Origin: an uncultured Paenibacillus sp.
GTDB taxonomy: Bacteria; Bacillota; Bacilli; Paenibacillales; Paenibacillaceae
Assembly: GCA_927443375.1 (NCBI GenBank)
Contig: CAKMKL010000147.1
Span: 1-34,362, forward strand
Length of the DNA: 34,362 bases
Direction: 5' to 3'
Shown: positions 18,470 to 18,642 of the stretch, one piece after another
Layout: every line of letters begins with the position of its first letter
Position numbering within the stretch: position 1 is the stretch's first letter
Position numbers and translations under genes: made by a program
Notes under the pieces: model-generated
What the model was told of the DNA's origin: nothing
Database searches by the model: none
Seen by the model: only the letters and a program-made list of their open reading frames with translations

Positions 18470-18566
18470 ACAATTATTGGCAAAATTCTCCGAAAGGGAA
18501 TGACGCAAAGCCATGGATCTACAGTCTCATTTTATCGGGACCAGGACAGCCAGGTTGCCTAAGAGC
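18470..18566 (+). ncRNA. Cyclic-di-GMP-I (GEMM-I) riboswitch aptamer
   Basis: Order of GEMM-I signatures: ttGGCAAA, P2 stem attctcC-GAAA-GggaaT with GNRA tetraloop, GACGCAAAGCC, P3 stem gtctc/gggac, ggaCAGCCAGGTTGCC receptor/closing segment; GGCAA (18479-18483) complements TTGCC (18555-18559). Confidence 0.87.
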
Positions 18567-18613
18567 CGGAACGTTTGAGACTTAGTACGTTCTAAATGAC
18601 TATTTAAGCAGCC

Positions 18614-18642
18614 GCCTGTACTCCCTGAGTACAGGTTTTCTA
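18614..18642 (+). terminator. Riboswitch expression-platform terminator hairpin
   Basis: cctgtact-ccctg-agtacagg followed by ttttct, between aptamer and first gene. A competing hairpin gaacgt...acgttc lies at 18569-18592. Confidence 0.75.

What the first reader, a model, noticed from the sequence alone, without database searches (positions are those of the whole stretch)
18470..18642. Cyclic-di-GMP-I riboswitch with terminator controlling a biosynthesis-like operon
The 5' leader holds the GEMM-I hallmarks in the right order (ttGGCAAA, a GAAA-capped P2, GACGCAAAGCC, a P3 stem, CAGCCAGGTTGCC), plus P1-type complementarity GGCAA/TTGCC. About 50 nt later comes an 8-bp terminator stem with a T run, and a competing hairpin (gaacgt/acgttc, 18569-18592) could form the switch. 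Known targets of this riboswitch class are mostly motility, adhesion, matrix and signalling genes. An AHAS-like/KAS III-like metabolic operon would be an unusual target and would make the product a lifestyle-switch metabolite.
Basis: partly seen in the sequence, partly recalled or inferred. Interest (0 to 1): 0.85.

Follow-up and report, generated by a model that had tools for sequence, protein, structure and literature searches.

The report
Riboswitch controlling a c-di-GMP-linked enzyme operon
A real c-di-GMP riboswitch, kept in almost every Paenibacillus species that has this operon, probably shuts off a thiamine-dependent carbon-carbon bond-forming enzyme when c-di-GMP is high, and relatives of that enzyme elsewhere in the Bacillota are co-encoded with c-di-GMP-degrading, kinase or chemotaxis signalling proteins, which points to an undescribed metabolite signal rather than ordinary amino-acid synthesis.

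Summary
Window 18469-18562 (+) matches Rfam RF01051 over its full length (68.4 bits, gathering score 35), between a sigma-A-type promoter (18412-18439) and a conserved terminator (18615-18639). In the same genus 59 of 101 species genomes carry the downstream ThDP enzyme gene, and 56 of these 59 have the aptamer core 156-402 nt upstream. In all 24 aligned leaders the aptamer's 3' strand is complementary to a segment that reaches into the terminator's 5' arm. I therefore predict an OFF switch; no ligand was tested. The target is not housekeeping AHAS: 292 bits against a cut-off of 538. The operon is ThDP enzyme, CMD protein, STAS-fold protein and a KASIII-like protein lacking the catalytic His and Asn. 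Relatives of the ThDP-CMD pair lie directly behind a DhaR-type sensor fused to PAS-GGDEF-EAL (30 loci, 18 named genera) or to a histidine kinase, or before an MCP gene; a second ThDP lineage (Ectobacillus, Peribacillus) has its own c-di-GMP-I riboswitch. The pair thus looks like a c-di-GMP-coupled metabolite-signalling module. The product is unknown. The switch is a known class with a new target.

The parts
18412..18439 (+). Promoter-like site TTGACA-16-TATATT just upstream of the aptamer
   Evidence: 11 of 12 consensus matches; TTGACAAAG-N-TATATTGTAAAGTAAAA also seen upstream in relative L170
18469..18562 (+). c-di-GMP-I riboswitch aptamer (RF01051); first G of GGCAAA (18479), taken as the position equivalent to Vc2 G20, is G
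   Evidence: 68.4 bits, E 1.5e-11; in all 23 relatives with 80% or more ThDP identity in the first survey; 56 of 59 in the genus survey. G20 equivalence is from my own knowledge
18545..18558 (+). Aptamer 3' strand GACAGCCAGGTTGC, proposed antiterminator strand
   Evidence: Pairs with 18608-18619 at -14.3 kcal/mol in the window, -9.8 to -17.7 in all 24 leaders
18559..18607 (+). Linker folding as a hairpin that includes gaacgt/acgttc (18569-18592)
   Evidence: A linker hairpin is predicted in every leader, the sequence is not conserved
18608..18619 (+). Antiterminator 3' half GCAGCC-G-CCTGT, overlapping the terminator 5' arm
18615..18639 (+). Intrinsic terminator CCTGTACTC-CCT-GAGTACAGG-TTTT
   Evidence: conserved with compensatory changes (CCTGTGCTC/GAGCACAGG, CCTGTACTC/GAGTACAGG)
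18682..20316 (+). ThDP-dependent enzyme, acetolactate-synthase-like, 544 aa, TTG start
   Evidence: PF02776, PF00205, PF02775; below TIGR00118 cut-off; closest solved chains BbmA 8X3X and CsmA 8X3Z
20326..20754 (+). CMD (carboxymuconolactone decarboxylase/AhpD-type) protein; real start probably the GTG at 20389 (122 aa), judged from relatives
   Evidence: PF02627 E 6e-10; conserved behind ThDP
20783..20901 (+). Conserved promoter-like element of the STAS-KASIII half, with TTCGAC and TGTCGAA (Spo0A-box-like) motifs
   Evidence: Conserved in most of 17 aligned intergenic regions; the TGTCGAA count over the whole window is no more than chance
20972..21316 (+). 114-aa STAS-fold (SpoIIAA/RsbV/RsbS-like) protein
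   Evidence: No Pfam hit; AF2 pLDDT 89; Foldseek PDB RsbV E 1.3e-4, SpoIIAA 3.7e-4, RsbS 9.5e-4
21352..22344 (+). KASIII-like protein: Cys118 kept, catalytic His replaced by Ser257, Asn by Tyr287
   Evidence: PF08545/PF08541, alignments, FabH fold
16772..18022 (+). Chemoreceptor-like protein (HAMP + MCP signalling domain) upstream; neighbour in most relatives, separated by a terminator at 18039-18063
   Evidence: an MCP gene is the direct operon partner of ThDP-CMD in alkaliphilic Bacillaceae

Best explanation
A c-di-GMP-I riboswitch controls transcription of a ThDP enzyme-CMD operon in Paenibacillus. At low c-di-GMP the aptamer 3' strand pairs with the segment before and inside the terminator 5' arm, the terminator cannot form and the operon is read. 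At high c-di-GMP the aptamer holds that strand, the terminator forms and transcription stops (OFF switch). [quoted passage not shown] STAS and the KASIII-like protein are a Paenibacillus-specific extension. ThDP-CMD is a c-di-GMP-coupled metabolite-signalling module: in relatives its genes sit directly behind a DhaR-type sensor fused to GGDEF-EAL or histidine kinase domains, or in front of a chemoreceptor gene. Shown by sequence: aptamer, terminator, conservation, gene contexts, folds. Inferred: ligand binding, OFF direction, reaction, product, sensing.
For: RF01051 hit; present in 23 of 23 close relatives and 56 of 59 in the genus survey. Terminator conserved with compensatory changes. Antiterminator complementarity in 24 of 24 leaders; in Peribacillus and Ectobacillus a different strand, the aptamer 5' strand AATAGGG(C), matches the terminator 5' arm (read), giving the same predicted OFF direction. 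ThDP-CMD next to sensor-PAS-GGDEF-EAL in 30 loci of 18 named genera, with EAL and DDFG intact in 29 of 30 (the 30th is broken up) and GGDEF degenerate in 4. Sensor domain is DhaR-type (E 1.5e-6; E 6e-18 to 7e-20). ThDP-CMD-126 aa-MCP order in eight loci of alkaliphiles and relatives. Two separate riboswitch lineages on the ThDP tree. Chemistry precedent: ThDP enzyme plus KASIII-like enzyme in carbazole biosynthesis (PMC7466098).
Against: The OFF direction rests on thermodynamic complementarity. Minimum-energy folds of the full leader let the inner GGTTGC/GCAGCC helix and the terminator coexist, so an ON or hardly switching design is not excluded, and truncated-transcript pairing is weak (P below 0.05) in L015, L018, L020, L022 and L031. 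The P. pabuli/xylanexedens group keeps the operon without the riboswitch, so c-di-GMP control is not essential. The window's genome (72% complete) and close relatives G011, G009 and G018 show no DhaR-type sensor. No product or enzyme activity is known.
Confidence: 0.6

Rival explanations
1. Same riboswitch but an ON switch: without ligand the long linker helix sequesters the aptamer 3' strand and leaves the terminator free; ligand rearranges the leader and allows read-through.
For: In full-length minimum-energy folds the anti-aptamer helix and terminator coexist.
Against: No conserved segment was found that could act as antiterminator once the aptamer is bound, while the aptamer-strand/terminator-arm overlap is kept by several different sequence solutions. 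The second lineage also reads as OFF.
Confidence: 0.2
2. The operon is an ordinary fermentation or secondary-metabolite pathway (acetoin-like or an acyloin natural product) that happens to be shut down in the sessile state; neighbouring signalling genes only regulate it.
For: ThDP, CMD and KASIII-like enzymes are all metabolic; ThDP + KASIII-like pairs make carbazoles (PMC7466098); ThDP genes next to KASIII-like genes also occur in Ktedonobacteria.
Against: No transporter, ACP, reductase or tailoring genes. The partners that recur over genera are sensors, GGDEF-EAL, kinase, MCP and STAS proteins.
Confidence: 0.3
3. The ThDP-CMD proteins are sensed by contact: the DhaR-type domain reads the state of the enzyme (as E. 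coli DhaR reads DhaK and DhaL) and passes it to c-di-GMP or phosphorelay outputs, reporting keto-acid supply.
For: The sensor domain's only significant solved relative is DhaR, PDB 4LRX-4LRZ; sensor and enzyme genes are adjacent or overlapping, mostly within about 40 nt. That DhaR binds DhaK/DhaL is my own knowledge.
Against: The DhaR family also resembles small-molecule-binding sensors such as AcoR; no interface prediction was run, and riboswitch lineages lack the linked sensor.
Confidence: 0.25
4. The aptamer is a relic or binds a different cyclic dinucleotide.
For: One relative (L021) has A at the G20-equivalent position; one (L170) has lost the aptamer but kept the terminator.
Against: Conserved in 56 of 59 genomes with many exact core matches; the window has G at that position.
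Confidence: 0.05

Closest known systems
c-di-GMP-I (GEMM-I) riboswitch, Rfam RF01051
   Same: Full-length aptamer match, terminator expression platform; proposed OFF logic as described for the class I flgB switch of Clostridioides difficile (PMC6366702)
   Different: Target is a ThDP enzyme-CMD(-STAS-KASIII-like) operon; the review lists motility, chemotaxis, adherence and other typical c-di-GMP processes. I found no paper on such a target
Acetohydroxyacid/acetolactate synthase large subunit (TIGR00118)
   Same: Three ThDP-enzyme domains, full-length alignment
   Different: 292 bits against a cut-off of 538; the genome also has separate, higher-scoring AHAS fragments; no small-subunit gene in the operon
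BbmA and CsmA (PDB 8X3X, 8X3Z)
   Same: Closest solved sequences, 227-243 bits
   Different: Their reactions could not be looked up here
Carbazole-pathway pair NzsH/CqsB3 (ThDP) + NzsJ/CqsB1 (KASIII-like)
   Different: No ACP and no carbazole synthase here; membership in those subfamilies was not tested
DhaR (dihydroxyacetone kinase operon regulator) sensor domain
   Same: N-terminal domain of the linked sensors in relatives
   Different: Output is GGDEF-EAL or histidine kinase instead of a sigma-54 activator; not present in the window
Alpha-hydroxyketone signalling (CqsA/LqsA with CqsS/LqsS)
   Same: Idea: small hydroxyketone synthase encoded next to its sensor kinase
   Different: CqsA/LqsA are PLP-dependent (own knowledge); not members, an analogy only

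Membership tests
c-di-GMP-I riboswitch (RF01051) | Covariance-model score above gathering cut-off over the whole model | tested here: met
   68.4 vs 35 bits, positions 1-87
c-di-GMP-I riboswitch (RF01051) | GAAA tetraloop P2, GACGCAAA, G at the G20-equivalent position | tested here: met
   G20 equivalence from own knowledge of Vc2 numbering
c-di-GMP-I riboswitch (RF01051) | Leader position: promoter upstream, terminator and coding gene downstream on the same strand | tested here: met
c-di-GMP-I riboswitch (RF01051) | Selective c-di-GMP binding and ligand-dependent termination | not testable with these tools
   needs RNA biochemistry
OFF-type transcriptional riboswitch | Mutually exclusive aptamer/antiterminator pairing overlapping the terminator | tested here: inconclusive
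   Complementarity in 24 of 24 leaders, but full-length folds allow coexistence with the inner helix
Acetolactate synthase large subunit (TIGR00118) | Score above curated cut-off | tested here: not met
   292 vs 538 bits
Acetolactate synthase large subunit (TIGR00118) | Catalytic glutamate and ThDP-binding GDG motif | tested here: met
   Columns E49 and G436-D437-G438 invariant, numbering of the first row of A1; that these are the catalytic and ThDP motifs is my own knowledge
Canonical KASIII (FabH) | Cys-His-Asn triad | tested here: not met
   Cys118 kept, His to Ser257, Asn to Tyr287
Canonical KASIII (FabH) | Thiolase fold | tested here: met
   FabH 1HN9 E 8.9e-30, TM 0.86
STAS domain | SpoIIAA-like fold | tested here: met
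STAS domain | Pfam sequence model | tested here: not met
   No family up to E = 1
CMD (PF02627) | Score above gathering cut-off | tested here: met
   39.4 vs 23 bits

The most novel reading that the evidence does not exclude
An undescribed small-molecule signalling system of Bacillota: a ThDP enzyme and a CMD protein make an acyloin-type signal that a DhaR-type sensor reads into c-di-GMP hydrolysis, phosphorelay or chemotaxis, and that two lineages have instead placed under c-di-GMP riboswitches, linking this metabolite and c-di-GMP in both directions.
Probability: 0.3. Interest if true: 0.88.

Novelty: new variant of a known kind. Interest (0 to 1): 0.64.

Why it matters
It gives a metabolic enzyme pair a predicted place in c-di-GMP signalling by several partly independent lines: two riboswitch lineages, fusion sensors in cis, and chemoreceptor partners. 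If true, an enzyme family now annotated as 'acetolactate synthase' in many Bacilli makes or reports a signal, and the input of a large set of GGDEF-EAL proteins, generally unknown, becomes testable with a defined enzyme as handle.

Tried and rejected
AHAS for branched-chain amino acids: rejected by score and context. The 18569-18592 hairpin as switching element: sequence not conserved. Riboswitch in the MCP-type alkaliphile loci or in GGDEF-EAL loci: none found. Nine further ThDP loci found with the Ectobacillus protein: no aptamer, but HK or GGDEF-EAL partners in most. Literature for BbmA/CsmA, c-di-GMP with acetolactate synthase, and ThDP with GGDEF: nothing on this system. Homology of the window's STAS-fold protein with the 126-aa alkaliphile protein: no BLASTP alignment, hhalign probability 80% over 23 columns only, left open. 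Linked sensor in the window's genome: not found, but the genome is 72% complete.

Full report
1. The observation. Rfam RF01051 matches 18469-18562 on the + strand over the whole model with 68.4 bits (gathering 35) and E = 1.5e-11 for the window. The genome holding the window (G000, 4.7 Mb, 72% complete, a Paenibacillus by its nearest relatives) has seven RF01051 matches, this one included. A TTGACA-16-TATATT site lies at 18412-18439 and a terminator at 18615-18639.

2. Conservation. In the 23 relatives with 80% or more identity in the ThDP protein found in the first survey, RF01051 lies upstream of the gene in all. A wider survey of 101 genomes of the genus finds the orthologue in 59, and 56 of them have the aptamer core 156-402 nt upstream (median 189). 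The three exceptions (L168-L170) have no aptamer by model search; one of them, L170, kept a promoter, pre-terminator segment and terminator, and all three also lack the STAS and KASIII-like genes. The P. pabuli/xylanexedens group has the four genes without the riboswitch.

3. Expression platform. The terminator stem is present in every aligned leader, with compensatory changes such as CCTGTGCTC/GAGCACAGG and CCTGTACTC/GAGTACAGG. The aptamer 3' strand GACAGCCAGGTTGC is complementary to the segment just before and inside the terminator 5' arm in all 24 leaders (-9.8 to -17.7 kcal/mol; at most 0.02 of whole-target shuffles as good in most leaders, up to 0.20 in the weakest). The relatives reach this by different sequences: CAACCTG, CAACC-GACCTG, GCAGCC-G-CCTGT, GCAACTGG-CCTGT. 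This supports an antiterminator that ligand binding would break, that is, an OFF switch. Caution: in full-length folds the inner GGTTGC/GCAGCC helix and the terminator coexist, so the direction is a prediction.

4. The target. The first protein has the three ThDP-enzyme domains but scores 292 bits against 538 for acetolactate synthase; its closest solved relatives are BbmA and CsmA, whose reactions I could not look up. The second is a CMD protein. The third, 114 aa, has no Pfam match but an AlphaFold model (pLDDT 89) whose best PDB matches are RsbV, SpoIIAA and RsbS. The fourth has the FabH fold and the active-site Cys, but Ser and Tyr in place of the catalytic His and Asn throughout its family. 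The gap between CMD and the STAS gene holds a conserved promoter-like element, so the riboswitch may govern mainly ThDP-CMD.

5. The wider family. A scan of named genomes gave 80 loci. A 66-member clade holds the window protein. In 30 of these loci, over 18 named genera, the ThDP gene directly follows a gene for a DhaR-type sensor domain, PAS, GGDEF and EAL; the EAL and DDFG motifs are intact in 29 of 30 (the exception is broken up), the GGDEF motif is degenerate in four, which fits a phosphodiesterase output. In six the same sensor is fused to a histidine kinase. In eight loci of alkaliphiles and relatives the order is ThDP-CMD-126-aa protein-MCP. A second riboswitch lineage, Ectobacillus (tandem aptamers) and Peribacillus, is separate from Paenibacillus on the tree; there the aptamer 5' strand AATAGGG(C) matches the terminator 5' arm (read), again OFF logic. 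In Clostridium chromiireducens a c-di-GMP-I riboswitch lies after CMD, before a CheY-like gene and an MCP gene.

6. Interpretation. The recurring partners of ThDP-CMD are c-di-GMP enzymes, c-di-GMP riboswitches, a sensor kinase or a chemoreceptor. [quoted passage not shown] I propose that ThDP-CMD makes an acyloin-like metabolite that is sensed, or whose synthesis is reported by contact with the sensor as I recall for DhaR and DhaK. In the window's lineage c-di-GMP would shut the pathway off in the sessile state. Everything from ligand binding onward is untested.

7. Novelty. The riboswitch class is known; a review lists motility, chemotaxis and adherence targets (PMC6366702), and no held paper was found that describes a c-di-GMP riboswitch on a ThDP-enzyme operon or this ThDP-sensor module. 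The library searched is open-access only, so absence there is weak evidence.

Noticed in passing
20783-20901: Conserved TTCGAC ... promoter-like -10 ... TGTCGAA pattern before the STAS gene in most relatives resembles Spo0A boxes; the TGTCGAA count over the whole window is no more than chance, so only the conservation speaks for it.
   Followed up: partly
13077-13304: T-box leader (RF00230, 102.9 bits) upstream of a phosphoglycerate dehydrogenase gene (13548-15140); ordinary.
   Followed up: no
L170 (G502), about 1900-2120: Relative in which the aptamer is missing while promoter, pre-terminator segment and terminator remain: a natural case for comparing regulation.
   Followed up: partly
L021:1272-1364: Aptamer with A at the G20-equivalent position (CAGCAAA), possibly altered ligand choice; the KASIII-like gene is missing in this genome.
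   Followed up: no
L002/L003 (G000:C218:8278-8512): Two tandem c-di-GMP-I-GGC aptamers before a gene that looks transglutaminase-like by eye, a tandem arrangement already reported for Bacillota (PMC12452182).
   Followed up: partly
L005 (G000:C328): c-di-GMP-I-GGC aptamer on the strand opposite to neighbouring small genes (a Xre/SinR-like HTH protein and a protein resembling camelysin/TasA by eye); no same-strand target seen in the piece.
   Followed up: no
L095:4059-4147: Clostridium chromiireducens: strong c-di-GMP-I riboswitch (83.6 bits) directly after sensor-HK-ThDP-CMD and before a CheY-like gene and an MCP gene.
   Followed up: partly
L056:5335-6579: An inserted gene in opposite orientation, transposase-like by eye, separates ThDP from CMD in one relative.
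   Followed up: no
L131, L132 (Ktedonobacteria): More distant ThDP homologues (about 31% identity) are also followed by KASIII-like genes.
   Followed up: partly
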